Shown here in pieces: positions 18,524 to 34,271 of a DNA stretch of 49,060 bases (its first letter is position 1; each line of letters opens with the position of its first letter). A program made the translations under genes and the position numbers. Source of the DNA: Ruminococcus flavefaciens (lineage in GTDB: Bacteria > Bacillota > Clostridia > Oscillospirales > Ruminococcaceae). The notes beneath the pieces are model-generated. The model saw nothing but the letters and a program-made list of their open reading frames with translations, searched no databases and was not told where the DNA came from. The DNA is taken from contig CACXEJ010000052.1 of the NCBI GenBank assembly GCA_902766595.1, positions 1 to 49,060 on the forward strand, written 5' to 3'.

Positions 18524-18556
18524 TGGCTGTTCCTCCGGTATGTTTAGTATGATTAT

Positions 18557-18586
18557 ATTATATCATACGCGGCAGAAATGTGTTAA
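18557..18586 (-). promoter_or_regulatory. metEF promoter
   Basis: On the minus strand: TTAACA (18581-18586), 18-bp spacer, TATAAT (18557-18562). The predicted start point is near 18550. Confidence 0.7.
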
Positions 18587-18608
18587 TACTAAAAAGAAAT
18601 GCACTACC

Positions 18609-18623
18609 ATAGCTAAAAGCTAT
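18609..18623. promoter_or_regulatory. LysR-type operator (T-N11-A) upstream of metE
   Basis: A perfect inverted repeat, ATAGCT-AAA-AGCTAT, containing T-N11-A. Its centre (18616) lies about 66 bp upstream of the predicted metE start point, the classic position of a LysR-type recognition site. It is just after the stop codon of the LysR gene, so part of a weak terminator is an alternative reading. Confidence 0.6.
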
Positions 18624-18624
18624 A

Positions 18625-19536: not shown

Positions 19537-19567
19537 ATCCGTGACCTCCTTCAAGTAATATCAATTC

Positions 19568-19688: not shown

Positions 19689-21773
19689 TTATCTTCTGAA
19701 TTTGAGTGCAAAGCCCAGACCTAAAATCAGTACAAGCCCGGATATTCCGAGGAGAATGTAAGCTGTATCGTGATCCTTTCCGCTGCCGGAAGAGCTGCCG
19801 CTCCTTGAAGGAAAGCTGTCCATTTTAGGTTTGCCGCCCTTGTCAGGTGAGGTAGTCTGACCGGAAGGAGAAGTCGCATCTTCGGAAGCTGATGCTGTTT
19901 CTTTGGACGAGTCCTCATCTTTGCCGGAGGGGAATGAGCCGTCCGGAGGAGTGAAGCCCTCAGGCATTTTGCCGCCAAAGTTTGAGGGATCGAAACCGCT
20001 GGGCATTTCGCCGCCGAAGTTTGAGGGATCAAAGCCGCTCGGCATATCACCGCCATTGAACTGCATATTGCTCATATTCATAAGTGAAGCATTACTGCTG
20101 CCAGACTGCTTGTTTCCGCCAAATCCGCCGAAGCCGCCTTTGCCGCCGCCCATATTCATCGAGCCCATATCGGAAATGTTGAGGTCGCCGGTATCAATGA
20201 GGGAAGAACTGTCGGCTTTCTGACCTTCTGATGTTGACGGGATAGAGCCGCAGAGCTGTCCGCTGACGCTTTCTGCGCGGAGGGTACAGAATTTGCTGAT
20301 AGCCTCAACGCCCTTTTGGAATTCGTCGTATGTGCAGAATTTAGTGGGATCCTTTTCAACGTATTCGTCGATGAGAGCAGCAGTATCCGAGATCATTTTC
20401 TCGAGGTCAACGCTGCTGAGAAACTCGCTGAAAAGCTTGTGGTACTGCTCTGTGTAGTCCTCGTCATCGAATATCCAGGAGACCATCGGACGGTCGCTCA
20501 TATCGTCTGAGACCGGTGTGTCAATTGGCGAATTGACCGAGGACGAAGCGTTTCCGCCGCTGAATGAACCGTATGCGAGATTGTAGTCCCACGGTATCAT
20601 AGAAAGCTGACCGTTTTTCTCGTAGAGGTAGTAATTGTGTATCATCTGACCGGTGTAGCTGTCGCCGTTGCAGAGGAAATTGTGCACCACGAAGTAGCGG
20701 ATGACCTCCTCAACATCGACGGTGCTTTCAAGGTCGGACTGCTCTGAGAGAGCCTTGAGTGAACGGATAAGGCGCTTCTTGTCAGCATCGTTCACAGTTG
20801 TTTTGGCGTTGTTGAAGATATTGGAGTAGCTGTCGAAGCTGTCATCAGTGTATTTCAGCTTGACATCGTCGCTGCCCATTCCGAAGCCGCCGGGCATATT
20901 GCCGCCGCTGAAATCGGGCATTTCGCCGTTTGCAAAATCCGGCATATTACCGCCGAAGTCAGGTATTTCACCGTTTGCAAAGTCAGGCATCTGTCCGTTT
21001 CCAAAGTCCTGCATATTACCGCCGCCGAAGTTGGGCATATTGCCTTTGCTCCTGCGCTCGGACTTGTCATTGTCATCGGAGCTGTCGCCGCTGTTCTTAT
21101 CCATAAACTCGCTCATACTGAAATCCTTGCCGTTTCCGGGACCGCCGCCGCCGAAGCTCATACTGTCCGGCTTGTAGAGGCCGCCGTAGTTGTTTCCGTA
21201 ATTTCTTGTGAGGAAGGACTCTTCGATAGCTTCAACAGCAAGGTAAAGTCCCCAGTCATCGCCGTTGACGGTTATGTAGGCGAAGCTGCAAAGGGGAGTG
21301 TCAACGCCGAAATCGTACATAAGGGTGTAGGCGAGGTAGTCCTTTATATATGTGTTGTCCTGTATTATGTTATTGAGACAGAGCTTGTCTAGACCGTGAT
21401 AGGACTTTGTGCTGTCGTACTGGTCAAACTCGACCTTGAAGCTGTAACGGTCGCTGTCCATATTCTTCACGGAGCTGAGAGAGGTGTTGCCCTTGGCGCG
21501 GATACCAACGTTCTTTGACGCTTCACCGTCGATCACGAGATCACAGCGGGAGTACTCCTCACTCTCGCACTTATCAATGAAGCCGTCCCAGTCGTCCATA
21601 ACGATATCAATTTTGTGGACCTTTGAACGGTCGAAGAGACGGTTCTCATAGCCGATAGCGTGAGCGGTTTTCTGTATGCCGAACGCCTGACCGTTGCAGA
21701 AAAGCACCGATATGATGATAGTGACCGCGATAGCGACAATGCATATTTTATCTATGCTCTTATGTGCTGACAT
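19689..21773 (-). CDS. CotH-kinase-like surface protein with Gly/Met/Pro/Phe repeats
   Basis: A 694-residue protein with an N-terminal signal anchor (residues 8-30) and a C-terminal TM helix (about 670-690) followed by KFRR, so the bulk lies outside the membrane. The CotH part begins at HKIDIVMDDWDGF, with VGIRAKGNTSLS, a substrate-positioning Lys region, and MIPWDYNLAYGSF. CotH proteins are atypical kinases that phosphorylate Ser/Thr of surface or spore-coat proteins. Two low-complexity stretches interrupt it: residues about 240-300 with repeats of N-M-P-D-F-x-N-G, and about 565-625 with 13-residue repeats [DE]MPSGFDPSNFGG. The gene is last in an operon with DUF4956 and VTC genes. The inserts resemble linkers in the MacAB-like operon at 28.7-34.3 kb. 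Confidence 0.85.
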   Translation of the reverse strand: MSAHKSIDKICIVAIAVTIIISVLFCNGQAFGIQKTAHAIGYENRLFDRSKVHKIDIVMDDWDGFIDKCESEEYSRCDLVIDGEASKNVGIRAKGNTSLSSVKNMDSDRYSFKVEFDQYDSTKSYHGLDKLCLNNIIQDNTYIKDYLAYTLMYDFGVDTPLCSFAYITVNGDDWGLYLAVEAIEESFLTRNYGNNYGGLYKPDSMSFGGGGPGNGKDFSMSEFMDKNSGDSSDDNDKSERRSKGNMPNFGGGNMQDFGNGQMPDFANGEIPDFGGNMPDFANGEMPDFSGGNMPGGFGMGSDDVKLKYTDDSFDSYSNIFNNAKTTVNDADKKRLIRSLKALSEQSDLESTVDVEEVIRYFVVHNFLCNGDSYTGQMIHNYYLYEKNGQLSMIPWDYNLAYGSFSGGNASSSVNSPIDTPVSDDMSDRPMVSWIFDDEDYTEQYHKLFSEFLSSVDLEKMISDTAALIDEYVEKDPTKFCTYDEFQKGVEAISKFCTLRAESVSGQLCGSIPSTSEGQKADSSSLIDTGDLNISDMGSMNMGGGKGGFGGFGGNKQSGSSNASLMNMSNMQFNGGDMPSGFDPSNFGGEMPSGFDPSNFGGKMPEGFTPPDGSFPSGKDEDSSKETASASEDATSPSGQTTSPDKGGKPKMDSFPSRSGSSSGSGKDHDTAYILLGISGLVLILGLGFALKFRR
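19971..20048 (-). repeat. Two 39-bp tandem repeats in the CotH gene
   Basis: Two adjacent 39-bp units (19971-20009 and 20010-20048) encode the 13-residue unit [DE]MPSGFDPSNFGG. A third partial unit (KMPEGF) lies on the low-coordinate side. The copies differ at several third positions, so the repeat is selected at protein level. Confidence 0.8.
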
Positions 21774-21785
21774 CGTATCACATCC

Positions 21786-22457
21786 TTAACCCATATAATC
21801 GCCGTTGTAGCTTACGAGAACAGCGCTGTTTACGCCGGGCATATCAGCGAGCTCGTTTACGAAATCTGTATTGTCGTCCTTGAGACGTATCTCCATATTC
21901 AGCTCAACAGAGCCCTTCTGAGCGGTCTTGCTCTTGACAACGCATCTTTCAGCCTTGCCGTCGAGGAAGGACTTTGCCTTGACCTCACTGTCGTGACCGT
22001 CGCAGCGGATAACGATGATGTAGGGATTTTTGCTGGACTTGCGGTTGACGAAAACGAGAAGGATAATACCGATCATTATGCTTCCGAAAACTGCAAGCGG
22101 TATCATACCGGCAGCGAGAACGATTCCGACTGCGATAGACCAGAACAGGAAAGCAATGTCAAGCGGTTCCTTAATGGCTGTACGGAAACGCACGATAGAG
22201 AGTGCGCCGACCATACCGAGTGAGAGTACGACGTTGCTTGTTACAGCGAGAATGACCACTGTTGTTATCATAGTGAGAGCAACGAGAGTGGTTCCGAAGC
22301 TGGCTGAATACATAACGCCGGAATAGGTCTTTTTGTAGACAAGGAAGATGAACATTCCGAGACCGAATGCGAGAACGAGAGCGATCGCCATATCGAGGAT
22401 ACTCACGCTTGTAACGTTGTCGATAAAGTTTGACTTAAAAACATCATTGAAACTCAT
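21786..22457 (-). CDS. DUF4956-family membrane protein
   Basis: A 223-residue protein with about four TM helices in the first 140 residues, then a small cytoplasmic alpha/beta domain (NPYIIVIRCDGHDSEVKAK...). The central motif LGMVGALSIVRFRTAIKEPLDIAFLFWSIAVG is the hallmark of DUF4956. The biochemical function of the family is not established. It is found together with VTC-domain proteins and CotH proteins, as here, which suggests one membrane-associated complex. Gaps are 12 nt to CotH and 18 nt to the VTC gene, so the three genes form an operon. Confidence 0.88.
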   Translation of the reverse strand: MSFNDVFKSNFIDNVTSVSILDMAIALVLAFGLGMFIFLVYKKTYSGVMYSASFGTTLVALTMITTVVILAVTSNVVLSLGMVGALSIVRFRTAIKEPLDIAFLFWSIAVGIVLAAGMIPLAVFGSIMIGIILLVFVNRKSSKNPYIIVIRCDGHDSEVKAKSFLDGKAERCVVKSKTAQKGSVELNMEIRLKDDNTDFVNELADMPGVNSAVLVSYNGDYMG

Positions 22458-22475
22458 TGTAAAAACTCCTTTGAT

Positions 22476-23144
22476 TTAACCGTAGATACGACAGGCAGCA
22501 TATTTTGAAAAAGCACCCTCGCGCCTGTCAGCAAGGGAAACAGCGTCTCTGATAATGTCGGGCAGGAAACCGTCCCACTTGACCTCGAGAATGATGCTGT
22601 CAGAGACAGGAACTGTCACGCAGTCGGGGGAGAGGAAGTCCGTACACCGCAGACCGCTTCTGATGTTATAATCGAGAGTCACACGAACGTTGCCGGCAGG
22701 GTATATGAAGGGCTCGCGTGTATAATCGACGATAGTTTTGGGAGCGATGCCCTGTGTCTGCATTTTTGAATAGAGCTCCCTGACGAGTGAAAATTCGGAA
22801 CTGAGCATCCATTTTGTATCGCCGTCAACTATGTTCTGAGCCTGCTGAGCGGTCAGCGGAGCACTCTGTTTGTTTCCGAGATGATCTATCTTGGTTTTCT
22901 TTTCAAGGTGGATAACAGAAGTGTCGCCGTTGTAGTATCTGATGCGGAATTTCTCACGTCTGCACATACCGTTTATCTTTTCCATAAGAGCCTTGTCCGC
23001 GAGGTTATCGAAGTAGAGGCTGCGTATGAGGTACTTGCCGTTTATGGTATGGGGATCTGGATAAGCAACAGTGCTGAGCCTGTGCCTGATAGTGATAAGA
23101 TCTGAGTAATTTATCTCGTGTTTGATTTCGTGTCTGAGATCCAT
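22476..23144 (-). CDS. VTC-domain (polyphosphate-polymerase-like) protein
   Basis: A 222-residue cytoplasmic protein of the CYTH-like tunnel fold, VTC group. Visible features: MDLRHEIKHEINYSDL (the EIKH pattern of the first strand), YLIRSLYFDN, EKFRIRYYNGDTSVIHLEKKTKI (the R-x-R and E-x-K basic strands that bind triphosphate/polyphosphate), VRVTLDYNIR, and SIILEVKWDGFLPDII. In yeast Vtc4 this domain makes polyphosphate; in bacteria the role is less certain. The start at 23144 has SD GAGGTG, whereas the alternative 30 nt upstream lacks one. It heads the operon VTC-DUF4956-CotH. Confidence 0.85.
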   Translation of the reverse strand: MDLRHEIKHEINYSDLITIRHRLSTVAYPDPHTINGKYLIRSLYFDNLADKALMEKINGMCRREKFRIRYYNGDTSVIHLEKKTKIDHLGNKQSAPLTAQQAQNIVDGDTKWMLSSEFSLVRELYSKMQTQGIAPKTIVDYTREPFIYPAGNVRVTLDYNIRSGLRCTDFLSPDCVTVPVSDSIILEVKWDGFLPDIIRDAVSLADRREGAFSKYAACRIYG

Positions 23145-23173
23145 ATTTTCACCTCTTTTCTGACTATGGTTCA

Positions 23174-23249
23174 ATTATACCGAAAATACCTTAAACGAAG
23201 CTGAAAACGTCTGCGCGGAGAGTAAAATCAGAGTGAAAGTTATGTGAAA
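23174..23249 (-). promoter_or_regulatory. VTC operon promoter with arrays of 11-bp-spaced direct repeats
   Basis: On the minus strand the -10 is TATAAT (23174-23179). Ten nt upstream is TTTAAG (23190-23195), then 5 nt, then TTTCAG (23201-23206). Further upstream are TTTTAC (23222-23227), TTTCAC (23233-23238) and TTTCAC (23244-23249), each separated by 5 nt. There is no recognisable -35. Direct hexamer repeats at 11-bp pitch overlapping the -35 are typical of PhoP/OmpR-type response regulators. The same layout precedes the gene at 28735. Confidence 0.65.
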
Positions 23250-23382
23250 ATATGCGGAAACCTGTCCGCGCCCAGTAAATAGGCGGCAGAAGCCTGACAA
23301 CGAAATACAGTAAAGTCTGACCTGCAAGCTGTCATTATTTACAAAAAATACGTATTTGAGAGGAAAAATATGCCTAATACAC

Positions 23383-23411
23383 TTGAAAAATCCGTGATAT
23401 TGTGGTATAAT
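23383..23411 (+). promoter_or_regulatory. Promoter of the EAL gene
   Basis: TTGAAA (23383-23388), 17-bp spacer, TATAAT (23406-23411). The segment between this promoter and the divergent VTC promoter (about 23250-23382) shows nothing else I can name. Confidence 0.8.
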
Positions 23412-23457
23412 TAGTTATAATTTCATAATGCTAATAATTTGAAAGGGTGGAATTCTT

Positions 23458-24648
23458 ATGAGTTATTCAGCAGAAGAGATCAGAGCAGCACTTGAAAATA
23501 ATGAGCTGACGGCATATTATCAGCCGCAGTACGATACATTAACGAACCGTCTTAAGGGTGCAGAGGCACTTGTGCGCTGGATAAAACCGGACGGCACGGT
23601 TATATCGCCCTTCCATTTCATACCTGTTGCGGAGGAGTCCGACCTCATAATGGAGATCGACTGGTACGTTACGGAGTTTGCCTGCAAGACACTTGAAAAG
23701 CAAAATCTTATGCCGCAGTTCCCGATCTCCGTAAACTTCTCGCGCAGACACATACTCGAAGATGATTTTGCCGAGAGACTGACGGCTCTCGTGGACAAAT
23801 ACGATCTGCCGCACCCTCTGCTCGAGGTGGAGATAACGGAGTCTGCAATGGTCGGCAACGAGGACAGACTACTCGGCTGGATCATTTCTATCAGAAAAGC
23901 CGGCTTCACCGTGGCGATAGACGATTTCGGCAGCGGACTTTCATCATTGCAGTTCGTAAAGGACGTTCCGGCAGATGTACTCAAGATCGACAAGTCACTC
24001 TTCAGCCGCAACTGTGAGGACGAGAAGGAGCGAATAGTTCTGGAGAGTATTTTCAGCTTTGCGCACAGACTGCGTATGAAGACCGTAGCCGAGGGTGTCG
24101 AGACCAAGGAGCAGCTCGCTTTCCTGCGCACCTGTGACTGCAGCAAGATACAGGGCTTCCTTCTTGCAAAGCCTATGACGGAGGAGGCTTACCTTGATCT
24201 CTGCCGTACATACAAGCTCGCTGACGAACAGACTGACATACTCCAGCTCCAGAACCCGACAGTTGCGAGCAATTTGCTTCTGGAGGTCATATTCCGGCGT
24301 TATCCGCTGGTCATCTTCACAAACCTTACGAGAAACACGTTCTATATGATGGCGTATCAGGATTTCACGCGGACGACCTGTCCCTCAACGGGAGTGTTCG
24401 ATGAGCTCATAGTCCACGGCTCTGCATCTATGCACCCCGACGACAGGGAGCTCTTCGCTTCCACCTTTGACCGTAAACGTCTGCTTGAGGATTACAAGTC
24501 AGGAATGCGCGAGAAGCGTCTTATAACGCGACAGCTCGGGGACGATGGCATATACAGAAGAGTGGAGACGTTTGACTATTTCGTAGACAACAACAGCTCT
24601 GACGATGTTCTCGCCATCACCCTGTGTGAAAACCTGCCTGATGAATAA
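23458..24648 (+). CDS. EAL-domain cyclic-di-GMP phosphodiesterase with a C-terminal sensor-like domain
   Basis: A 396-residue protein without TM segments. The EAL domain spans about 8-255 and retains the catalytic set: AEALVRW (EAL), VNFSRR (Asn), EITESA (Glu), IDDFGSGLSS (two Asp), LKIDKSL (Lys), AEGVET (Glu) and QGFLLAKPM (Gln). It should therefore hydrolyse c-di-GMP to pGpG. The C-terminal 130 residues look like a divergent PAS-type domain (FTNLTRNTFYMMAYQDFTRTT..., HPDDRELF). Start with AAAGGGTGG as SD. It is 70 nt upstream of a GGDEF gene, so the pair may set a local c-di-GMP level. Confidence 0.93.
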   Translation: MSYSAEEIRAALENNELTAYYQPQYDTLTNRLKGAEALVRWIKPDGTVISPFHFIPVAEESDLIMEIDWYVTEFACKTLEKQNLMPQFPISVNFSRRHILEDDFAERLTALVDKYDLPHPLLEVEITESAMVGNEDRLLGWIISIRKAGFTVAIDDFGSGLSSLQFVKDVPADVLKIDKSLFSRNCEDEKERIVLESIFSFAHRLRMKTVAEGVETKEQLAFLRTCDCSKIQGFLLAKPMTEEAYLDLCRTYKLADEQTDILQLQNPTVASNLLLEVIFRRYPLVIFTNLTRNTFYMMAYQDFTRTTCPSTGVFDELIVHGSASMHPDDRELFASTFDRKRLLEDYKSGMREKRLITRQLGDDGIYRRVETFDYFVDNNSSDDVLAITLCENLPDE

Positions 24649-24718
24649 ATTTACAGCAAACAGCAAAATGCTTTGACGTCTACTGATCAAGCACGGACTG
24701 TATAAAGGAAGTGAACTG

Positions 24719-26248
24719 ATGAGAATAACCTATTCCGTACTATATATTATACTGATCTTTGCAATGTTAGGCTGTACGCTGATTGCCAAACGTTCTACAC
24801 GTCCGTTCCGCAACTCGGTCGCATGGCTTGAGTCGTCTGTTACACTGCCCATATTAGGAAACCTTATGATAATACTGTCAGATAACAGAACTGTATCGTT
24901 CTTAGGTCACTACATATACTTCATAGGTATAGATATCGTGCTGTTCGCACTGGTGAATTTTACGAACCAATACTGTGCCGGTACCGGTGACGGAACGCAG
25001 AAACCAACTGTTATGTATGTCATGCTCGGTGCGGATATGGTGCAGATGATGCTTAATCCGCTTTTAGGACACGCATTCGATATTAAGAAAGCACCTAATG
25101 ACACCGGTGCATATTATACTCTGGTCATACACGCCGGACAGATAGTTCACCGTCTCGTTGACCACGGAATACTCGCCTGCGTTGTACTGATAATATTTCT
25201 TGTCTCCATTCAGACACCGAAGATCTACCGAGAACGCTTTACGGTAATTCTTGGTGCACTGATAGCAGTGTGTGTGATGCAGACATACTATGTTTTCACA
25301 GAGAGCAGCTATGACCGTCCTGTTATCGGATACGCATTTTTCGGAATGGTAATATTCTACTTTGCCGTTATTTACCGACCGCTCCGGCTGCTGGATCAGA
25401 TGCTCTCAAACATCATTTCTGACCTGTCAGATGCGTTCTATGTATTCGATCCGAACGGCAAGTGCATCTGGGCAAATGAACAGGGCTGCAAGCTCGTCGG
25501 CTTCACCGGCAAGAACTATGAAGATATAAATTCCGGACTTATTAAGCTGTTTGGCAAGCCGAATGATAACGATAATCATATCGGTAAGAAAACCGTCGGA
25601 GAGGGGGACGATGTCCGTTTCTACCTTCTTGACGAAAAGCAGGTAACGGGAAGCAGCGGCAAACGAAACGGCTCCTATCTGCGTATACAGGACGTTACCG
25701 ATGAGGAGCGCGAGATCAAGGCTCTTGATGAACAGATCGGACAGATAAGTCAGGAGGCGTACAAGGACTCTCTTACCGGTGTCGGAAATAAGAACGCTTA
25801 CAACAACAAGATCGGTGAGATCAATGAACAGATCGAGAACGGACTTACTGACTTTGCGGTCGTGATGGTCGATATGAACAACCTCAAACGCATCAATGAT
25901 GAGTACGGTCATAAGGCAGGTGATCTTTACATCAAGGGCTGCTGCTACCTCATATGTGAAGCCTTCAAGCATTCGCCTGTATTCCGTATCGGAGGCGACG
26001 AGTTTGTTGCCATACTCCGCGGACAGGATTTCGAGAGAAGGTTCCAAAATCTTCAGGATCTGCGCGACTCATTTGATGACGCAATGGAAAACGCGGAAGA
26101 AGATCCGTGGCTGCGCTACTCAGCTTCAGTCGGAATGGCAGAACACGGTTCTGACGATAATTCCTTTGAGCTGGTATTCAAAAGGGCTGACAGAGCGATG
26201 TATGAGGAAAAGAAACTCTTCAAGGCACTTCACGGAAGTTACAGATAA
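24719..26248 (+). CDS. Membrane diguanylate cyclase (7TM - PAS - GGDEF)
   Basis: A 509-residue protein. Residues 1-225 hold about seven TM helices of the HisKA_7TM type (first helix MRITYSVLYIILIFAML). A PAS domain follows at about 240-330 (ISDLSDAFYVFDPNGKCIWANEQGCKLVGF), a short linker with E-rich helix, then the GGDEF domain from about 350 (DSLTGVGNKNAY... FRIGGDEFVAIL). The GGDEF signature is intact, so it should make c-di-GMP; the RxxD inhibitory site is absent (KHSP at that position). SD AAAGGAAGTG precedes the ATG. It follows the EAL gene and ends at a terminator. Confidence 0.93.
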   Translation: MRITYSVLYIILIFAMLGCTLIAKRSTRPFRNSVAWLESSVTLPILGNLMIILSDNRTVSFLGHYIYFIGIDIVLFALVNFTNQYCAGTGDGTQKPTVMYVMLGADMVQMMLNPLLGHAFDIKKAPNDTGAYYTLVIHAGQIVHRLVDHGILACVVLIIFLVSIQTPKIYRERFTVILGALIAVCVMQTYYVFTESSYDRPVIGYAFFGMVIFYFAVIYRPLRLLDQMLSNIISDLSDAFYVFDPNGKCIWANEQGCKLVGFTGKNYEDINSGLIKLFGKPNDNDNHIGKKTVGEGDDVRFYLLDEKQVTGSSGKRNGSYLRIQDVTDEEREIKALDEQIGQISQEAYKDSLTGVGNKNAYNNKIGEINEQIENGLTDFAVVMVDMNNLKRINDEYGHKAGDLYIKGCCYLICEAFKHSPVFRIGGDEFVAILRGQDFERRFQNLQDLRDSFDDAMENAEEDPWLRYSASVGMAEHGSDDNSFELVFKRADRAMYEEKKLFKALHGSYR

Positions 26249-26259
26249 CATCATAAAGA

Positions 26260-26300
26260 AAGGCTGTATCGCACAGAGATGTACGATACAGCCTTTTTTG
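26260..26300. terminator. Bidirectional terminator between GGDEF and the LRR gene
   Basis: A perfect 12-bp stem AAGGCTGTATCG (26260-26271) with CGATACAGCCTT (26284-26295), then T's (26294-26299) on the plus side. It serves the plus-strand gene and lies 32 nt from the stop of the convergent minus-strand gene. Confidence 0.9.
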
Positions 26301-26331
26301 CCGGTTAGGGATATTAGCAGCACAGTTGGAC

Positions 26332-28317
26332 TTACAGGCTGCTCACCAGTCCGAGCTTGTATTTCTGAATGAGCAGTGCGTCTGAATTTGTAAGACCGGG
26401 AGTGCCGTCAACGTCAGCGAGTTCTTCACCCTTGGACGTTATGCTGGATTTAGTTCTGAATTTTCCGTATTTGTCGGGGTTAGTAGCGACCTGCATAACG
26501 AGTACCGCGTCTGAAATGTTGACCTTATCATCGAGGTTCGCGTCACCTTTGAGGAAAGGATCCTCCAGCGCCCTGAATTTGCAGCCGTATTTTTCTGCGT
26601 AAGCCTGAGCGGTGGAATTCCTGTAACCATATATGGTGACGTCCGGATCAACACTGTTTTTGTTCTCGTCAAAGACAATGTCGGGGTTGAGAAACGTTAT
26701 CGAGCGGAGAAGACCTTTGTAGTCAAAAGCGTCTCTTCCGATGTATTTGTAGTTTTCGGGAACTGTTATCGCTGAAATATCCCTGCATTTCCAGAAAGCG
26801 TTATCGCCGAGCTTTTCGATAACAACGCCGTCTTGTTTTTCGGGGAGGACTACGTCGCCGTACAGACCTGTGAAGCAGTGTGAGATAGTCGGGCAGTCGC
26901 TTACAATATCAACGTAAAACTCCTCATAGCCCTTGTAGCTTGTGGTCTGAACAGATGTGACAGTGGTATCCGGAGCAGAGGTCACAGTTGAGGAGGTTGT
27001 CGGCTGAGAAGTGCCGGACGTAATATCTTCGGAAATGGGTTCAAACTTGTAGCCGTACTTTTCAGCATATTCCTGAGCGGTTGAGTCTGCATAGCCAAAG
27101 ATAGTGCCATTGTAGAAAGGAATAAATTTGTATTCTTCGTAATTTTCACCGCTGCAAATCGTAAGACTATCATCAAAAATCTCGCAGGAAGAATTCAGAA
27201 TAGTAACTGATGTCAGATGTGTACAGTTGCTAAAGGCAGCTTCGTCTATGCTTTTTACAGACTCGGGAATAGTTATTGAAGTAAGGCTTAAACAGTTAGC
27301 AAAAGCATATCTATCTATACTTGTAACTGAACTTGGGATAATAATAGATTCAAGGCTTTCGCATTTTGCAAAAGTATCTTGTTTTATGGTTTTAACTGAA
27401 TCAGGAATATTAGCTGATTCAAGACTTGTGCAATGACTGAATGCACTGCTTCCGATGCTTGTGACCGAATCAGGGATCTTTATTGACCTGAGATTTACAC
27501 ATTCCTCAAACGCAAAATCACCAATACTCGTTACTGAATTTGGTATAGATACTGATCTGAGACTTGTACAGTTATCGAAAGCAGAATTGCCAATGCTTTT
27601 AACTGAATCTGGAATAACTACTGATGTAATTTTTCTGCAATCTTTAAATGCAGAGTCACCTATAACAGTGACTGAATCAGGAATAGTAATATCTCCTGAG
27701 CAAGCTGTACTGTCAATAAGGATATTATTAACAAAAACTGCCGGGTTTTCTTTTTGTTTAGCTTCAAGCCACGCAGTATTTTTGAACGCAGATCTGCCAA
27801 TGCTTGTAACAGACTCAGGGATTGTTATTGATGTCAGACTCCTACAGTTTTCAAAAGCACCAATACCTATGCTTGTAACAGACTCAGGGATAGTTACTGA
27901 CGTAAGGCTTTTACAATTATCAAAAAGACCGCTGTCAATGCTTGTAACTGAATCAGGGATAGTTATTGATGCAAGGTTTGTACAGTTAGAAAAAGCCCTT
28001 TGACAAATGCTTGTAACAGAATTAGGGATTGTAACTGATGTAATGCTTGCACAGCTATCGAAAGCACTCAAGTGAATGAATGTGACAGGAACTCCATTGA
28101 TTTTGTCGGGAATGATTATTTCTCCCGCTGCACTTTCGTCACACTTTACAACTTCGGCGTGATCTTCATAAACGTAGTATGTAAGAACGCCGTCCACGAC
28201 CTCATCACCGTCTTCTGCGCTTGCTGTGATAACGCTCGCCAGTGAAGAATGGTACGCAGCAGGCATAGCGCCGCCGACTATACAAAGTGCCATAATTGAT
28301 GCTAATAGTTTTTTCAT
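26332..28317 (-). CDS. Secreted leucine-rich-repeat (LRR_5/BspA-like) protein with dockerin
   Basis: A 661-residue secreted protein. It has a signal peptide (MKKLLASIMALCIVGGAMPA..., cleavage likely near residue 35). From about residue 70 to 395 there are more than ten tandem 23-residue repeats of the LRR_5 type, consensus x-L-x-S-I-x-I-P-x-S-V-x-S-I-x-x-x-A-F-x-x-C. A Ser/Thr-rich linker (about 430-460) follows, then a second short repeat region, and finally a type of dockerin: DANLDDKVNISDAVLVMQ and DVDGTPGLTNSDALLIQK. Dockerins bind cohesins of scaffoldins, so this protein is probably placed on the cellulosome; LRR_5 proteins bind ligands or surfaces and have no catalytic site here. Strong SD AAGGAGGT. 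Confidence 0.9.
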   Translation of the reverse strand: MKKLLASIMALCIVGGAMPAAYHSSLASVITASAEDGDEVVDGVLTYYVYEDHAEVVKCDESAAGEIIIPDKINGVPVTFIHLSAFDSCASITSVTIPNSVTSICQRAFSNCTNLASITIPDSVTSIDSGLFDNCKSLTSVTIPESVTSIGIGAFENCRSLTSITIPESVTSIGRSAFKNTAWLEAKQKENPAVFVNNILIDSTACSGDITIPDSVTVIGDSAFKDCRKITSVVIPDSVKSIGNSAFDNCTSLRSVSIPNSVTSIGDFAFEECVNLRSIKIPDSVTSIGSSAFSHCTSLESANIPDSVKTIKQDTFAKCESLESIIIPSSVTSIDRYAFANCLSLTSITIPESVKSIDEAAFSNCTHLTSVTILNSSCEIFDDSLTICSGENYEEYKFIPFYNGTIFGYADSTAQEYAEKYGYKFEPISEDITSGTSQPTTSSTVTSAPDTTVTSVQTTSYKGYEEFYVDIVSDCPTISHCFTGLYGDVVLPEKQDGVVIEKLGDNAFWKCRDISAITVPENYKYIGRDAFDYKGLLRSITFLNPDIVFDENKNSVDPDVTIYGYRNSTAQAYAEKYGCKFRALEDPFLKGDANLDDKVNISDAVLVMQVATNPDKYGKFRTKSSITSKGEELADVDGTPGLTNSDALLIQKYKLGLVSSL

Positions 28318-28536
28318 AACGATAACCTCCTTGTCATACGAACAATTTTAAATATATTTTACCACGTCCCCCTTAAAAAGTCGATACTTATTACCCGAAT
28401 TTAACATTTAGTTTAAAAAAACGTCATACTGCACAATTGCCGGCGGCTTAATTTGTGCGAAGTGCAGTCCGGAAAATACTGTCCCTTATACCAAAGAGAA
28501 AAGCTCTTCGCACGTGGGCTGCTAAAGAGGACGTTA

Positions 28537-28582
28537 TAAGTCAGAGCCTGAACTTTTGTATCAAGGTCATATGTCAGACAGG
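28537..28582 (-). pseudogene. Decayed dockerin 3' end
   Basis: The plus-strand sequence TAAGTCAGAGCCTGAACTTT... matches the end of the dockerin gene at 35063 (about 26 of 31 positions). Translated on the minus strand it reads LIQKFRL followed by stop TGA (28541-28543), the same as the dockerin LLIQKFKLGL. Upstream an in-frame stop lies near 28569-28580, so the module is broken. It sits in the 417-bp gap before the export operon; the rest of that gap holds an inverted pair GTGCGAAG (28455-28462)/CTTCGCAC (28506-28513) with no known role. Confidence 0.5.
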
Positions 28583-28631
28583 TGTGCGAAAAACGGCATA
28601 TGTGTTCGGTAAGTGAAAAACGGCTTTATTT

Positions 28632-28686
28632 TTTCATAAAAGTGTCATTTGGTTTTAAGCACTGTTTAAGTTTATTCTGCTATTAT
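28632..28686 (+). promoter_or_regulatory. Export-operon promoter with four 11-bp-spaced repeats
   Basis: In order: TTTCAT (28632-28637), TGTCAT (28643-28648), TTTAAG (28654-28659) and TTTAAG (28665-28670), each separated by 5 nt, then exactly 10 nt to TATTAT (28681-28686), a -10-like hexamer. No -35 is visible. The layout matches the VTC operon promoter (see 23174-23249). Confidence 0.6.
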
Positions 28687-28734
28687 TATTTATGAAGAGT
28701 GAATACCTCGAACACATAGAAGGAAGTGGAAGAT

Positions 28735-30804
28735 ATGAAACAGGAAAACAGCAGATCACGCCGTATCCGCGTGATCGCAGCTATATGTGCAATGGTCATA
28801 CTGGCAGGCAGTTCAGCCGGAGTATATTCGCTCCGCAGAAATCCAAACGCAAAAGCAGCTCCGGCAGAAAAAGCAGCTGCAAGCTCTTCTGCAAGTACCG
28901 ATGAAGAGATAATAAGTGCAGGCGGAACAGTAACGTCGGCACAGCTCGGAGAGTCGCTTTGTCTGGAGAATACATCAGTACGTCTCAGCGTTGAAAAGGT
29001 GCTGGTGGAGACAGGTCAGAGCATTACAGCAGGAACTCCTATCTGCCAGCTGAGCACTGACAGTCTGCAAAAGGCAGAAAAGACTCTGAAGTCAGAACTG
29101 CAGAGCGCTGAAAGTGCACTGCTCGAAGAGAAAATGTCTTATCAGACCGACAAGAACGAAGCATATCTGCTCTATAAATCTGATCTTCTCCTCGGAGAGA
29201 CAGCTCAGGCAGAATACGACAGCGGAATAAAGTCACTCGACAGTGAACTGAACAAGGCAAAGGACGAGTACGAAGCGGCTCTTGATACGATAAACAATTC
29301 TCCGGCAGAGATTGAGTCCAAGCAGGCAGAGCTCACTTCGCAGCAGAACAATGTAAGCACACTTACTGAGAAAAAAGAAGCTGCTCAGAGCAAGGCAGAT
29401 GAAGCCAAGAAGACTTACACCTCGGCGGCTGAGACTTATAACAGTGCAGCAGAGGATCACAACAGTGCTGCAAGTGTAGTGCGCTATCTCGGAAAGGCTC
29501 TCGGCAAGGACACCTCCGGTTTCAGCGGCGCACAGAAAGTAACTGCGGACATTCAGGAACAGGAAGAAGCTCCTGAGGAAAATGTTCAGCAGCCTGAAAG
29601 CGATAATCTGCCGGCAGATATGCCTGATAGTATGCCGGAAAGTATGCAGGGAGAACGTCCCGCAGCGGACTTCAATTTCGAGGATAAGGACAGCGGTGAG
29701 CGCAAGGCTCCCTCGTCAGGTATGCCGCAGGGGGAGGACGAAAAACAGTCCTCCGGCAGCGAAAAGACAGCTCCGGCAGAGCAGAAGGAACCAGCTTCCG
29801 CTGATACTCAGACAGCAAAGGTCACAGCGGATAAAAATGATAAAACTGAGAGCAAAGAGGTCACGGCAAACAGCAGCTCTTCCGAGCTGAATGACCTTTA
29901 CGAGACTGCACTTTCAGAGTACAACACACAGAATGAAAAACTGAAAAAGGCTGAGACTGCTATGCAGGAAGCCGAGAAGAATTACAACGAGCTTGCGAAG
30001 GAGCTTTCTGAATGCAGCAGCGAGCTGAAAGAAGCACAGAACGCAGTTTCCTCTCTTAATAAGGAGATAAGCAGTCTGAATACTGCGCTTTCAAAGGCGA
30101 AGAGCAATATCAGCAAGCTGCGTTCAGAGTACAACTCGCTTCAGGCTTCTTATGAAGCCGACAAGCTCGAACTGAAAAACAAACTCGATACCGATACCGC
30201 TTCCAGTGAGAATGCAGAATATCATTATCAGATAACCTGTTCAACACTCGACAAGGAGCTCGAAGAAAAGCAGACTGCTTATGACACAGCGCAGGAAAAC
30301 CTCCGCATATTCAGCGAGGATCTCGCAGACGGCAATATCTGTGCAAAGCAGGACGGTACGATCTATTCGTTGAGCTGTCAGGAGGGGAGGAGCATTAACA
30401 CAAATTCCCCCTACGTTTACTACGTTGATGAGAGCCGGTACAGCACAACGGTCGAGGTGGATCAGAACGATGTTACAAAGATAAACATCGGCGATGACGC
30501 TGCGATCTACTCATCAGAAACTGGCATCGTCACCGGCAAGATAACAGCGATCTCTGCCGGAACTTCAACATCACTCGCAGATGTCCGCTTCAATGTAACC
30601 GTAACGGCTGACGAGGGCGCAAGCCTCTATGTCGGACAGTCCGTAAACGTTTACTTCAACTACGGTGATATTAAAACAGGAGACTTTTCTGATTTTACCG
30701 GAGGCAAAGACTCAAGCGGCGGACGTCCCGATTTCAGCGGCGGTATGCCGGAGGGCTTTGATCCGTCGAATATCCCTGATTTCAGAAGCAGAAAGGATGA
30801 TTGA
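28735..30804 (+). CDS. HlyD/MacA-like adaptor protein with long coiled coils (first adaptor)
   Basis: A 689-residue membrane-fusion-type protein. The start ATG 28735 is preceded by AAGGAAG; a GTG at 28726 is less likely. N-terminal signal anchor (MKQENSRSRRIRVIAAICAMVILAGSSAGV). A biotinyl-lipoyl-like strand (VLVETGQSITAGTPICQLS) brackets two very long coiled coils (about 115-220 and 380-510) separated by an acidic, Met/Pro-rich disordered stretch (about 280-375). The C-terminal barrel has YYVDESRYSTTVEVDQNDV. The final 40 residues are low complexity with SGGMPEGFDPSN. Adaptors link an ABC permease to the cell surface. It is followed after 1 nt by a second adaptor. Confidence 0.85.
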   Translation: MKQENSRSRRIRVIAAICAMVILAGSSAGVYSLRRNPNAKAAPAEKAAASSSASTDEEIISAGGTVTSAQLGESLCLENTSVRLSVEKVLVETGQSITAGTPICQLSTDSLQKAEKTLKSELQSAESALLEEKMSYQTDKNEAYLLYKSDLLLGETAQAEYDSGIKSLDSELNKAKDEYEAALDTINNSPAEIESKQAELTSQQNNVSTLTEKKEAAQSKADEAKKTYTSAAETYNSAAEDHNSAASVVRYLGKALGKDTSGFSGAQKVTADIQEQEEAPEENVQQPESDNLPADMPDSMPESMQGERPAADFNFEDKDSGERKAPSSGMPQGEDEKQSSGSEKTAPAEQKEPASADTQTAKVTADKNDKTESKEVTANSSSSELNDLYETALSEYNTQNEKLKKAETAMQEAEKNYNELAKELSECSSELKEAQNAVSSLNKEISSLNTALSKAKSNISKLRSEYNSLQASYEADKLELKNKLDTDTASSENAEYHYQITCSTLDKELEEKQTAYDTAQENLRIFSEDLADGNICAKQDGTIYSLSCQEGRSINTNSPYVYYVDESRYSTTVEVDQNDVTKINIGDDAAIYSSETGIVTGKITAISAGTSTSLADVRFNVTVTADEGASLYVGQSVNVYFNYGDIKTGDFSDFTGGKDSSGGRPDFSGGMPEGFDPSNIPDFRSRKDD

Positions 30805-30805
30805 T

Positions 30806-32350
30806 ATGAAGAAGATTATTGCAGGCACTTCCGCACTTGTACTTGCAGGCGGCGGTGTACTGGGCTACAACATATATCAGAAGAATTCACAGAGCAGTGC
30901 TGCACCCGTGATAAAGGAAGTGACAGTTTCAAGAGGAAATGTCACCGCGGGAGTAACAGAAAGTGCAGCTGTCAGCGTTGAGTCGCTTGAACAGAACTAC
31001 GATCTTGTGCTCACGTCAACGAGCGTTTCTGCTTCGGTCGAGAGCGGAAGCTCTGCTCCGGGAAGCAGCTCTGTACCGGGCGGAAATTCAGCTCCGGGCG
31101 GAATGAGTATGGGCAGTATGATGGGCAGCGGTATGGCTGGCGGCGGAAGCTCTTCCGTCAGCAAGAGCTCAAAGAGCGGAAGCAGCGGCTCGACAAGTGT
31201 TTCGACAAAGTCCGAGTCCTCGGCGGTCGCACTCGTTGTTGACAAGGTCCTCGTCACAGAGGGACAGAATGTCAAAGCCGGCGATGTGCTTATGACTATC
31301 ACTCAGGAGAGTCTGGACGAAGCGCGTTCATCCCTAACAAAGGCAGTCGAGGACGCAGAGCTTGCTCTCCGTCAGGCGCAGATAGAGGAGAGCGAGACCA
31401 GCCTTTCAGCAAAGTACGACTACGATAAGCGTATTGCTGAGGGAAAGAACGCACAGTCCGTCTATAACGCGGCTCTTGAGGAGATCGCTCAGAATATCAG
31501 CGGACTTCAGAGCCAGATCGAAGATATAAACGCTCAGATCGCAGACTGTACCGATGAAAAGCAGCTCACACAGCTCAAGAGTCAGCTTGAGTCTCTCCAG
31601 TCTCAGCTCACCTCTGCTGAGAGCTCCCGTTCCGCAGACGAGCTCGCAGCAAAGCAGACATACGAGGAAGCCTGTATGTACTATGAGAGCGCTCAGGACC
31701 TCTATGATGTATCCGTGAGCGGAGTCGGTTCGGCAACAGAGGAAGCACAGGACGCAGTTGATGCAGCCAAGGCTGATCTGAAAGCGTTTGAGGAATACGT
31801 TTCCGACGGAAAGATACTTGCCGAATACAGCGGTACTATCACGGGCGTAGGCTACTCGTCCGGAGATACTCTTTCGTCAGACACTGCGATCGCGAGCTTT
31901 GCAGACGCTGAAAGCATAACCGTTACTGTAAATGTGACCGAGGACGATATAGCAGCCGTTCATCTCGAGGACGCTGTGGACATCAGCTTCCTTTCATATC
32001 CTGATGATATGTTCAGCGGATATGTTTCGGAGATAGGTTCCTCTTCAACGAGCGGCAATTCCTCGACCGTAAGCTACCCTGTCACAGTTGTGGTAACGAG
32101 CGTTCCGGAAACCCTTCTTTCAGGTATGACTGCTAACGTCACATTTATCTCAAAGCAGGTCAAGGACGTGCTCTGTGTTTCAAACAAGGCAGTAAATACA
32201 GACGGCTCAGTGAGCTATGTATGGCGTAAGAGCGATGACGGCGGCGAAGAAAAGGTCGATGTCAGAGTAGGCTTCTCAAATGGCAGCATAGCTGAGATAG
32301 AAGGCGTGTCTGAGGGCGATACACTTCTGATAAAAGGTAAGGTGTCCTGA
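30806..32350 (+). CDS. HlyD/MacA-like adaptor protein (second adaptor)
   Basis: A 514-residue adaptor. The start at 30806 is chosen because AAAGGATG lies 7 nt upstream and the resulting protein begins with a signal anchor (MKKIIAGTSALVLAGGGVLGYN). After the anchor: EVTVSRGNVTAGVTESAAV, a Gly/Ser/Met-rich loop (about 85-140), the half-lipoyl motif VLVTEGQNVKAGDVLMTI, a long coiled coil (about 165-310), the matching lipoyl half (GKILAEYSGTITGVGYSSGDTL), a beta-barrel, and a membrane-proximal domain ending LLIKGKVS. It belongs to the MacA/RND-like adaptor group. Stop and next start are separated by one base. Confidence 0.88.
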   Translation: MKKIIAGTSALVLAGGGVLGYNIYQKNSQSSAAPVIKEVTVSRGNVTAGVTESAAVSVESLEQNYDLVLTSTSVSASVESGSSAPGSSSVPGGNSAPGGMSMGSMMGSGMAGGGSSSVSKSSKSGSSGSTSVSTKSESSAVALVVDKVLVTEGQNVKAGDVLMTITQESLDEARSSLTKAVEDAELALRQAQIEESETSLSAKYDYDKRIAEGKNAQSVYNAALEEIAQNISGLQSQIEDINAQIADCTDEKQLTQLKSQLESLQSQLTSAESSRSADELAAKQTYEEACMYYESAQDLYDVSVSGVGSATEEAQDAVDAAKADLKAFEEYVSDGKILAEYSGTITGVGYSSGDTLSSDTAIASFADAESITVTVNVTEDDIAAVHLEDAVDISFLSYPDDMFSGYVSEIGSSSTSGNSSTVSYPVTVVVTSVPETLLSGMTANVTFISKQVKDVLCVSNKAVNTDGSVSYVWRKSDDGGEEKVDVRVGFSNGSIAEIEGVSEGDTLLIKGKVS

Positions 32351-32351
32351 T

Positions 32352-33752
32352 ATGCGCTTTTCGGAGATATTAAATCTTGTAAAACTCAATCTTATACAGA
32401 ATAAATTCAAGGTGCTGCTCACCTCGATAGGAATAATCGTCGGAGCGGCAACGATAGTAAGCGTTATCGCTATCGGAAAAGGCGGCAAGGCAGATGTTGC
32501 AGACCAGTTCCGCAATCTCAATGCCGGAGCACTCGACATCAGCTATGAGCAGTCGCAGAAGAGCAGCGGTTCTCCGTTCGGGAGCGGTTCGTCCGGCTCT
32601 TCAAAGGAGAGCGGCAGACCGAGCTTCTCTTCCGGCAGCTTCACTCCTCCCAGCGGCGGAGGTATGCCGGATCTCTCCTCAATGAAGAGCGGCGGCAGCC
32701 AGTCCGGCGGAAAAGGCGGCAGCTTCCCGGCAGGCTTCGGCGGATTTTCCTTCGGCGATACTAACGTAAAAAACAAGGAGCGGATAACACTCACGACCGA
32801 CGATATGGACGATATTACGGCTTCTGTTCCGGGACTGAGCGACGCTACCATTTCATATACGACCAAGCAGAATATCTATGGCGGAAATATTGAGGAGTCG
32901 GAGTCCTATACTATTGCAGGAACTCTTTCAAACTACGCAGATCTCAGCAACCTCTCGATGCTTTTTGGCGACTACCTTACGGACGAGGACAATGAGAACA
33001 AGAACAAGGTATGCGTGATCGGATATACGGCTGCAAAGAAGATCTTCGGCAGTGTTGAGGACGCATATGACAGCATTGTCTACATTGATGACCGTCCGTA
33101 CACAGTCGGCGGAGTGCTTGACGAGCAGGGCTCTGTCGAAGCAGGAATAAGTGCTGATGAAGCGATATTTATTCCATATGCGACAGGCATAAAGTACCTC
33201 ACCGGCAGCGACATCAGTCCGACTATCACAGTCATTGCTGAGGACGTAAACAACATCAGTACAGTCACTGAAAACGTGAGAAATGCACTTGCTGTCAGCT
33301 ATCCCAATGCTGAGTTTACGATTTCAGACGCAGGCAGCAAAATGGAAGCTGCAAACAAGTCTAACAAGACACTCACACTTATGCTTGCGGCTATGGCATC
33401 TATCGTGTTCATTATCGGCGGCATAGGTATTATGAATGTACTCTTTGTCTCAGTCAAGGAGCGAACTCAGGAGATAGGCATACTCAAGGCTATCGGCGGT
33501 TCGAGGAAGGATATTCTCATAGAATTTATGATGGAAGCCTGCTGTATAAGCCTTATCGGCGGAATTATCGGAATTGCGCTGAGCTTTGGAGTAAGTCCGG
33601 TCATTTCCGGTTTTAACATAAGAATGGAAATGTCTATGGCAGGAGCACTTACAGCGTTGGGATTTTCAGTTGCTACCGGAACTGTATTCGGTTTCTATCC
33701 GGCGTGGAAGGCTTCGAGACTCGTGCCTGTTGAGGCACTTTCGAGTGAATGA
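32352..33752 (+). CDS. MacB-like ABC transporter permease (FtsX domain)
   Basis: A 466-residue permease with four TM helices: one N-terminal (about 20-42), then a large extracellular domain (about 43-330), and three near the C-terminus (about 335-460) with MAAMASIVFIIGGIGIMNVLFVSVKERTQEIGILKAIG, the FtsX/MacB signature. The extracellular domain contains a Gly/Ser/Pro-rich insert (about 78-140) with GGGMPDLSS and FPAGFGGFSFGD, unlike normal MacB. MacB-type systems work as mechanotransmission pumps that export peptides, toxins or lipoproteins. The ATPase is the fifth gene (34284). Confidence 0.93.
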   Translation: MRFSEILNLVKLNLIQNKFKVLLTSIGIIVGAATIVSVIAIGKGGKADVADQFRNLNAGALDISYEQSQKSSGSPFGSGSSGSSKESGRPSFSSGSFTPPSGGGMPDLSSMKSGGSQSGGKGGSFPAGFGGFSFGDTNVKNKERITLTTDDMDDITASVPGLSDATISYTTKQNIYGGNIEESESYTIAGTLSNYADLSNLSMLFGDYLTDEDNENKNKVCVIGYTAAKKIFGSVEDAYDSIVYIDDRPYTVGGVLDEQGSVEAGISADEAIFIPYATGIKYLTGSDISPTITVIAEDVNNISTVTENVRNALAVSYPNAEFTISDAGSKMEAANKSNKTLTLMLAAMASIVFIIGGIGIMNVLFVSVKERTQEIGILKAIGGSRKDILIEFMMEACCISLIGGIIGIALSFGVSPVISGFNIRMEMSMAGALTALGFSVATGTVFGFYPAWKASRLVPVEALSSE

Positions 33753-33776
33753 TAAAATATGAAGAGGAGTAATGAT

Positions 33777-34271
33777 ATGAAAAAACAGCTTATTGCAGCA
33801 GCTCTTATAACAGCAATGTTTGCATCACTTGCATCGTGCGGAAAGAGTTCAAAGGCTGCTGATACGAATTATATTTACGGAAAAATAGACTCGATTTCCG
33901 GCAACGATGTCGTTCTGCTGCTCGCAGAAGAGAATACTGATAATACAGGCGCTGAGAATGACGAAGAAGAGACCGGTACTTCTGAGAAGAAGTCTTCCGT
34001 AAAACATTCAGGCAGAAATAAAGGCGAGAAGCCGGAGGGCTTTTCAAGACCTGAGAACGGTGAGAAGCCTGAACGTGGCGGAAATAACAGCAAGTACACT
34101 CTTACAGGTGAACAGGAAGAGGTCCGTATCCCTGTCGGAACAGATGTTACCACAAGTGACGGCGTAAAGACCGATTTTGACGCTCTTAAAGCCGGAAACA
34201 TCATAAAGTGCAGCGTCGAAAAGGACAGCGACGGCAAGGACGTTGTTAAAGAAGTTTGGATAGTTGAGTAA
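33777..34271 (+). CDS. Small lipoprotein in the export operon
   Basis: A 164-residue protein with a lipoprotein signal peptide ending LASC (Cys at about residue 21). It has SDs GAGGAG upstream of the ATG at 33777 (an ATG 18 nt upstream has none). The middle is charged and disordered with repeats GEKPEGFSRPENGEKPERGG-like, then a small beta domain (YTLTGEQEEVRIPVGTDVTTSDG) that resembles secreted beta-rich domains (DUF5666-like). It lies 24 nt after the permease and 12 nt before the ATPase, so it probably works with the exporter, as a substrate or periplasm-side accessory. No family is certain. Confidence 0.75.
   Translation: MKKQLIAAALITAMFASLASCGKSSKAADTNYIYGKIDSISGNDVVLLLAEENTDNTGAENDEEETGTSEKKSSVKHSGRNKGEKPEGFSRPENGEKPERGGNNSKYTLTGEQEEVRIPVGTDVTTSDGVKTDFDALKAGNIIKCSVEKDSDGKDVVKEVWIVE

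What the first reader, a model, noticed from the sequence alone, without database searches (positions are those of the whole stretch)
19689..34271. Shared M-P-x-G-F-D-P-S-N linkers connect the CotH protein with the MacAB-like exporter
Seen: CotH has [DE]MPSGFDPSNFGG repeats and MPDFxNG repeats; adaptor 1 ends with GGMPEGFDPSN; the permease insert has GGGMPDLSS and FPAGFGG; the small lipoprotein has GEKPEGF. Such a rare Met-Pro-Gly-Phe signature in four proteins of two operons suggests a common partner, self-association, or phosphorylation by CotH (Ser in PSN/PSG). Together with the shared promoter this supports one surface system: VTC - DUF4956 - CotH kinase - two adaptors - FtsX permease - lipoprotein - ATPase.
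Basis: partly seen in the sequence, partly recalled or inferred. Interest (0 to 1): 0.75.

Follow-up and report, generated by a model that had tools for sequence, protein, structure and literature searches.

The report
Sticky-looking tails on surface proteins
A gut bacterium of the rumen type decorates a surface kinase and parts of a neighbouring export pump with the same rare short peptide; the match is real, but relatives often have one without the other, so it looks like a shared kind of floppy connector rather than proof of one machine.

Summary
The words are real. A DNA pattern for MPxGF[DETNKA]P hits the 2.47 Mb draft genome four times: three in CotH, one in the adaptor-1 tail. In 100 genomes of the genus (own included) it hits 78 times; 74 are in frame and 73 of those lie in four extracytoplasmic families: VTC-operon CotH (45), exporter lipoprotein (19), adaptor-1 tail (5), Cthe_2159 (4). 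Not chance.

"One eight-gene system" is weakly supported. CotH is in 7 of 12 genomes with the exporter permease, on another contig in 6 of those 7. In 125 genus genomes: exporter 7, CotH 36, both 5 (p=0.02, not tree-corrected). Each keeps its linkers without the other. I found no upstream similarity, no DNA copying, no genome-by-genome matching of words (p=0.45, n=6), no constant serine.

New: the adaptor-1 tail is as conserved as its folded domains, and Met/Pro/Gly-rich tails occur on MacAB-like adaptors of other families of the order (loci partly selected). Best reading: a Gram-positive MacAB-like exporter with a constrained sticker tail, beside a separate CotH cassette that uses the same linker style.

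The parts
19689..21773 (-). CotH-family surface kinase (694 aa), hydrophobic helix at each end (by reading and model); linker 1 inside the kinase fold (residues ~206-299), linker 2 between kinase and C-terminal helix (~539-648)
   Evidence: PF08757 E 1.8e-58; 5jd9 by sequence; AF2 model, mean pLDDT 65.5, matches 5jda TMt 0.80; both linkers pLDDT<50
19953..20045 (-). three MPxGF words of CotH linker 2
20883..21038 (-). MPNF/MPDF/IPDF/MPGGF words of CotH linker 1
21786..22457 (-). DUF4956 protein
   Evidence: PF16316 E 2.5e-10; weak MgtC/SapB match far below its cut-off
22476..23174 (-). VTC-domain (polyphosphate polymerase-like) protein
   Evidence: PF09359 E 9.3e-36
28726..30804 (+). adaptor 1, HlyD-like, long coiled coil
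   Evidence: PF13437 E 7.3e-8
30721..30801 (+). adaptor-1 C-terminal tail GRPDFSGGMPEGFDPSNIPDFRSRKDD, strongly conserved
   Evidence: columns 661-690 mean identity 0.75 against 0.23-0.33 in the coil-tip insert, 11 sequences, gaps counted
30806..32350 (+). adaptor 2, HlyD/RND type, with Gly/Met-rich insert near 31058-31147, N-terminal to the lipoyl turn
   Evidence: PF16576 E 4.1e-12; insert in the 8 sequences examined
32352..33752 (+). MacB-like permease with M/P/G/F-rich ectodomain insert (about residues 67-137, by reading)
   Evidence: PF12704, PF02687; MacB 5lil E 3.1e-44; rich segment in 11 of 11 sequences
33759..34271 (+). small lipoprotein (lipobox by reading), OB-like barrel, linker between strands 2 and 3; 0 MPxGF here, up to 7 in orthologues
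   Evidence: alignment A1; AF2
34284..34970 (+). MacB/LolD-type ATPase
   Evidence: PF00005 E 2.9e-35; NCBIfam MacB 2e-71, below its cut-off

Best explanation
Two separate extracytoplasmic systems share a linker idiom. (1) A Gram-positive MacAB-like exporter (two HlyD-type adaptors, MacB-like permease, OB-like lipoprotein, ATPase; shown by homology) carries Met/Phe-Pro-Gly-Asp or Gly/Met stretches on each part that faces outward: adaptor-1 tail, adaptor-2 insert, permease ectodomain insert, lipoprotein loop (shown). The adaptor-1 tail is a constrained linear element (shown). I infer that these stretches dock on each other or on the pump's base through spaced Met/Phe stickers, holding or sealing the adaptor tube on the permease-lipoprotein base. 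(2) A VTC-DUF4956-CotH cassette makes a membrane-anchored CotH kinase whose two disordered linkers use the same words but evolve fast; I infer a similar membrane-proximal docking or spacer role. The likeness between (1) and (2) most likely reflects repeated use of the same sticker-and-spacer composition, also seen in Cthe_2159 proteins, not one eight-gene machine.
For: Family restriction of the word. Adaptor-1 tail 0.75 mean identity, like the blocks from residue 451 to 660 (0.72-0.83), against 0.23-0.33 for the coil-tip insert. M/P/G/F-rich ectodomain segment in 11 of 11 orthologous permeases, against 1 of 28 readable more distant ones, a doubtful long frame (slightly different stretch measured). 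M-rich neighbour frames at 15 of 28 distant permease loci; when 20 loci were read, 14 of them picked for such a neighbour, 10 of 15 profile-detected adaptors had the rich segment, plus three more confirmed by Pfam. Phe in 121 of 129 CotH and 54 of 54 lipoprotein units (the pattern asked for F or M there). Independent occurrence of the operons. Third-base identity of shared codons 0.39 between proteins of one genome and 0.40 between genomes.
Against: No call shows docking. Some distant adaptors have Ser/Asn/Gly-rich tails with no hydrophobic stickers (L265, L266) or no such tail (L264, L267), as a passive tail would. This window's lipoprotein has nearly lost the word. CotH and lipoprotein linkers vary greatly in length. 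The operons co-occur somewhat more than chance (p=0.021), lie 5.5 kb apart here, and in G435 both are reduced, so a functional tie is not excluded. Sensor kinases beside both operons carry loosely similar words.
Confidence: 0.5

Rival explanations
1. One surface system: CotH and the exporter share a common partner or associate with each other through the MPxGFDP words.
For: Word rare and in both; operons neighbours here; both in 5 of 125 genomes where about 2 are expected. metE-MTHFR-LysR genes lie near the CotH operon in the window, G006 and G105, and near the exporter or its remnant in G442 and G445 (metE, MTHFR and LysR confirmed by Pfam for the window, metE for G442 and G445; the rest by likeness), hinting at an old neighbourhood. 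In G445 CotH and an exporter remnant are on one 150 kb contig, about 41 kb apart. In G435 both the exporter and the CotH cassette are reduced.
Against: CotH absent from 5 of 12 permease-bearing genomes, one of them 95% complete (G015); 31 of 36 CotH genomes of the genus lack the exporter; in G445 the exporter decayed while a full-length CotH stayed; no genome-specific matching of words.
Confidence: 0.15
2. Neutral low-complexity spacers: flexible linkers that drift to a Met/Pro/Gly/Phe-rich make-up, with no specific binding.
For: Length and copy number vary widely; order-wide tails range from MPGGG repeats to Ser/Asn-rich ones.
Against: Near-invariant adaptor-1 tail; F/P conservation; restriction to a few families, while the linker of the neighbouring LRR protein is S/T-rich.
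Confidence: 0.2
3. The repeats are CotH substrates: CotH phosphorylates Ser in its own linkers and in the lipoprotein and adaptor.
For: Kinase fold and conserved motifs present; Bacillus CotH phosphorylates serine-rich repeats of CotB (PMC7821199, abstract and passages).
Against: Ser at the PSN position in 40 of 129 and 27 of 54 units; repeats persist without this CotH, though other CotH paralogues could stand in.
Confidence: 0.08
4. Metal handling: Met-rich stretches bind Cu(I)/Ag(I); the lipoprotein is a CusF-like chaperone for the exporter.
For: AF2 lipoprotein is a five-strand OB-like barrel whose top PDB match is CusF (1zeq, prob 0.99), fifth SilB C-terminal domain (2l55); Met-rich adaptor-2 insert; heavy-metal regulator models rank second for the two-component pair beside the G108 exporter.
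Against: Foldseek E 0.089, no match below 0.001, model mean pLDDT 66; OB folds are common; profile search of solved structures found no CusF at E<=1; the window lipoprotein's word has Lys for Met; the regulator matches are far below their cut-offs (177 of 279 and 140 of 293 bits) and similar models rank high for many such regulators.
Confidence: 0.07

Closest known systems
Gram-positive MacAB-like exporters (Spr0693-0694-0695 of Streptococcus pneumoniae, PMC5768738, passages; YknWXYZ of Bacillus, abstract start in a listing)
   Same: Separate MacB-type permease and ATPase with a HlyD-type adaptor; permease matches MacB 5lil and the chain 5xu1 (that 5xu1 is the Spr structure is recalled)
   Different: Two adaptors, an OB-like lipoprotein inside the operon, M/P/G/F-rich inserts and tail; substrate unknown
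CotH - polyphosphate polymerase - DUF4956 accessory genes of Gram-positive Pel loci (PMC7112168, passages read)
   Same: Same three gene families together
   Different: PelG (PF16933) found in 0 of 125 genus genomes; linkers of this kind were not mentioned in the passages read
Bacillus CotH kinase with CotB/CotG (5jd9/5jda; PMC7821199, abstract and passages)
   Same: Kinase fold and HNY / IPWDY motifs
   Different: Anchored in the membrane, in a VTC-DUF4956 cassette, with two M/P/G/F linkers; substrates unknown
Cthe_2159 carbohydrate-binding family (PF14262)
   Same: Carries the same linker word in 3 of 100 searched genomes and related styles in many of the 30 loci looked at; matched together with CotH in one open frame at G000:C73
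   Different: Different family; not encoded in these operons

Membership tests
MacAB-like ABC exporter | MacB periplasmic core domain plus FtsX permease | tested here: met
   PF12704 E 5e-24, PF02687 E 1.3e-20; 5lil E 3.1e-44
MacAB-like ABC exporter | HlyD/MacA-type adaptor encoded beside permease and ATPase | tested here: met
   PF13437/PF16576 and PF00005 in one gene run
MacAB-like ABC exporter | export of macrolides or peptides | not testable with these tools
   no substrate data; NCBIfam MacB equivalog cut-off 966 not reached (190.5 and 241.2 bits for the separate permease and ATPase)
CotH kinase family | CotH kinase fold | tested here: met
   PF08757 E 1.8e-58; 5jda TMt 0.80
CotH kinase family | catalytic residues and activity (D228Q inactivates B. 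subtilis CotH, PMC7821199 passage) | tested here: inconclusive
   D371, H379, N380, D396 invariant in 18 of 18, but D228 was not mapped residue by residue and no assay is possible
One eight-gene surface system | the two operons co-occur | tested here: not met
   CotH in 7 of 12 permease-bearing genomes; exporter in 5 of 36 CotH genomes of the genus; a modest excess over chance remains
One eight-gene surface system | shared promoter or upstream sequence | tested here: not met
   local alignment 22 against shuffle mean 19.8, in this window only
CusF-like metal chaperone (lipoprotein) | OB fold like that of CusF | tested here: inconclusive
   top Foldseek hit but E 0.089
CusF-like metal chaperone (lipoprotein) | sequence relationship to solved CusF proteins | tested here: not met
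   profile search of solved structures gave no CusF at E<=1; the metal ligands of CusF were not mapped

The most novel reading that the evidence does not exclude
Spaced Met/Phe stickers in Gly/Pro/Asp spacers form an FG-nucleoporin-like cohesive mesh at the base of Gram-positive export tubes, built from adaptor tails, permease inserts and lipoprotein loops, and the same code recruits other surface proteins such as CotH and Cthe_2159 to membrane-proximal clusters.
Probability: 0.12. Interest if true: 0.72.

Novelty: new variant of a known kind. Interest (0 to 1): 0.4.

Why it matters
MacAB-like exporters occur across gut Firmicutes, yet how an adaptor tube stays seated on its permease in a cell without an outer membrane is little known (general knowledge). 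A constrained, recurrent Met/Pro/Gly tail on the adaptors gives a concrete element to cut or scramble. The CotH cassette has no settled extracellular role; knowing that its linkers do not depend on the exporter removes a misleading lead.

Tried and rejected
Shared upstream sequence: none beyond shuffles. DNA-level copying of repeats between proteins: not seen; third-base identity 0.39 between proteins of one genome, 0.40 between genomes, 0.48 within one protein. Genome-by-genome matching of linker words: none, 0.420 against 0.417, p=0.45, n=6 of 9 genomes tried; three dropped because the script did not find their lipoprotein. Pel connection: PelG found in 0 of 125. A pattern MP[DE]G(F/M/I/L)xPP over 291 class genomes hit 3, one of them this one; of the other two hosts one is Cthe_2159, one a fragment with no family. 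Literature: in the listings no title or abstract start names such linkers or adaptor tails (one search listed 12 of 925 papers; one search listed 8 of 10; two searches found none). Four papers were opened, passages only: PMC7112168, PMC2879425, PMC7821199, PMC5768738.

Dropped rows and caveats. Of 78 genus hits 4 were out of frame and 1 lay in a short unrelated ORF; that script labelled the G122 adaptor-1 hit 'other' and I assigned it. Unit counts use a pattern that itself requires P and F/M. Of 27 other genomes with distant permeases I read 20, of which 14 were picked because one search showed an M-rich neighbour, so the tail frequency is biased upward; the unselected figure is 15 of 28 loci with an M-rich neighbour frame, some of which may be unrelated frames. 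The 36 CotH genomes include three divergent ones and some partial genes; without the divergent three the co-occurrence p is 0.014. Most genomes are drafts, so absences are weak. The background sample of this genome took every seventh contig up to C120 plus C50, C53 and C73, the last three because they hold Cthe_2159 genes.
Full report
What is there. The window is contig C52 of a 145-contig, 82% complete draft genome. A genome of the same genus, G122, has a contig of the same length (221,080) as a record titled Ruminococcus flavefaciens SIG534. On the minus strand lie VTC (22476-23174), DUF4956 (21786-22457) and CotH (19689-21773). On the plus strand lie adaptor 1 (28726-30804), adaptor 2 (30806-32350), a MacB-like permease, a small lipoprotein and an ATPase (to 34970). 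EAL, GGDEF and LRR genes stand between.

Is the motif real? All quoted words are present. A DNA pattern for MPxGF[DETNKA]P hits the whole genome four times: three in CotH, one in adaptor 1; the reversed control gives none. In a sample of 302 ORFs, MP.GF is found only in these two. In 100 genomes of the genus, own included, the pattern hits 32 genomes 78 times, the control once. Mapping every hit: 45 CotH, 19 lipoprotein, 5 adaptor 1, 4 Cthe_2159, 4 out of frame, 1 in a short unrelated ORF. The signature is rare and family-bound. In the window the lipoprotein keeps only KPEGF; orthologues have up to seven MPxGF.

Are the operons one system? In 125 genus genomes the permease is in 7, CotH (E<=1e-80) in 36, both in 5; hypergeometric p=0.021, not corrected for kinship. 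A lipoprotein scan gave 13 named loci; 8 of their 13 genomes have a CotH match, one of them partial. Merged, 12 genomes have the permease (own, G006, G015, G022, G023, G108, G122, G436, G437, G441, G442, G443) and 7 of them CotH (own, G006, G022, G108, G122, G437, G442); in 6 of these 7 the two operons are on different contigs. Two more genomes keep exporter remnants only: G445, with a full-length CotH, and G435, where a single frame joins a VTC part to the second half of CotH, so that both systems look reduced. In the loci read, 13 of 22 around CotH and 6 of 8 around the exporter also hold a response-regulator gene of the respective type (text test); these differ between the two operons. So there is a modest association and no obligate tie, and linkers remain in each partner when the other is missing.

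What kind of element is it? CotH linkers are disordered (pLDDT<50 at 206-299 and 539-648); one interrupts the kinase fold, the other lies between kinase and C-terminal helix. The lipoprotein is predicted as a five-strand OB-like barrel with the linker between strands 2 and 3. In adaptor 1 (11 sequences) the tail block averages 0.75 column identity, like the folded blocks before it (0.72-0.83), while the coil-tip insert averages 0.23-0.33. The 11 orthologous permeases each carry an M/P/G/F-rich ectodomain segment, and the eight adaptor-2 sequences examined a Gly/Met-rich insert. Shared words are not recent DNA copies and do not match genome by genome.

Wider context. At 15 of 28 distant MacB-like permease loci from other families of the order a neighbouring frame is M/P/G/F-rich. 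I read 20 such loci, 14 of them chosen for that neighbour. Of 15 adaptors found by profile, 10 have the rich segment, nine at the C-terminus and one in a frame fused to the ATPase; three more, confirmed as HlyD-type by Pfam, also end this way; L263 ends FDPSNRPSGGIPSGFGG. Others have Ser/Asn-rich or no such tails. The exporter tail is therefore part of a broader exporter habit, independent of CotH. The published Gram-positive MacAB-like structure describes a hexameric tube and a gating ring formed by lipoyl-domain loops (PMC5768738, passages); the adaptor-2 insert lies N-terminal to its lipoyl turn and is not shown to be that ring.

Mechanism. Shown: homology, constraint on the adaptor-1 tail, family restriction. 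From family knowledge: placement outside the membrane. Inferred: that Met/Phe stickers dock exporter parts to each other. CotH phosphorylation of the linkers is possible but unsupported: Ser at the PSN position in 40 of 129 and 27 of 54 units. Metal binding is suggested only by a weak CusF fold match (E 0.089).

Verdict. The constrained adaptor tail is the part worth testing.

Noticed in passing
window 23458-26248: EAL and GGDEF genes sit divergently beside the VTC-DUF4956-CotH cassette; bifidobacterial Pel loci pair the same cassette with a cyclase/phosphodiesterase gene (PMC7112168, passage), but PelG was found in 0 of 125 genus genomes.
   Followed up: partly
L040:4343-5560, L097:7856-9085, L191:3954-5174, L036:1-959: Sensor kinases beside the CotH cassette carry KPDNMPDNIRLPFF-like words (matched in 13 of 20 loci) and three beside the exporter MPNFINTE/LPDFINSE words in the part between the two hydrophobic helices.
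   Followed up: partly
L191:5695-7121, L214:7743-8311: Decayed exporter operons: G435 keeps the permease end, lipoprotein and ATPase; G445 keeps a scrap of adaptor 1 and the lipoprotein.
   Followed up: partly
L218:8277-9947: In G435 one open frame joins most of VTC to the second half of CotH, including its linker, as if by deletion.
   Followed up: partly
window 15388-19554; L045:15004-19163; L198:7096-11249; L214:2003-6329: A metE - MTHFR - LysR cassette (window and two metE genes confirmed) neighbours the CotH cassette in some genomes and the exporter or its remnant in others.
   Followed up: partly
G000:C73:13803-15887: An open frame of about 929 codons holds both a Cthe_2159 match and a CotH match, two linker-bearing families in one frame.
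   Followed up: no
window 26332-28317 and 35063-36262: Two BspA-type LRR proteins flank the exporter; the first has a sub-threshold dockerin match at its end and an S/T-rich linker, unlike the M/P/G/F linkers.
   Followed up: no
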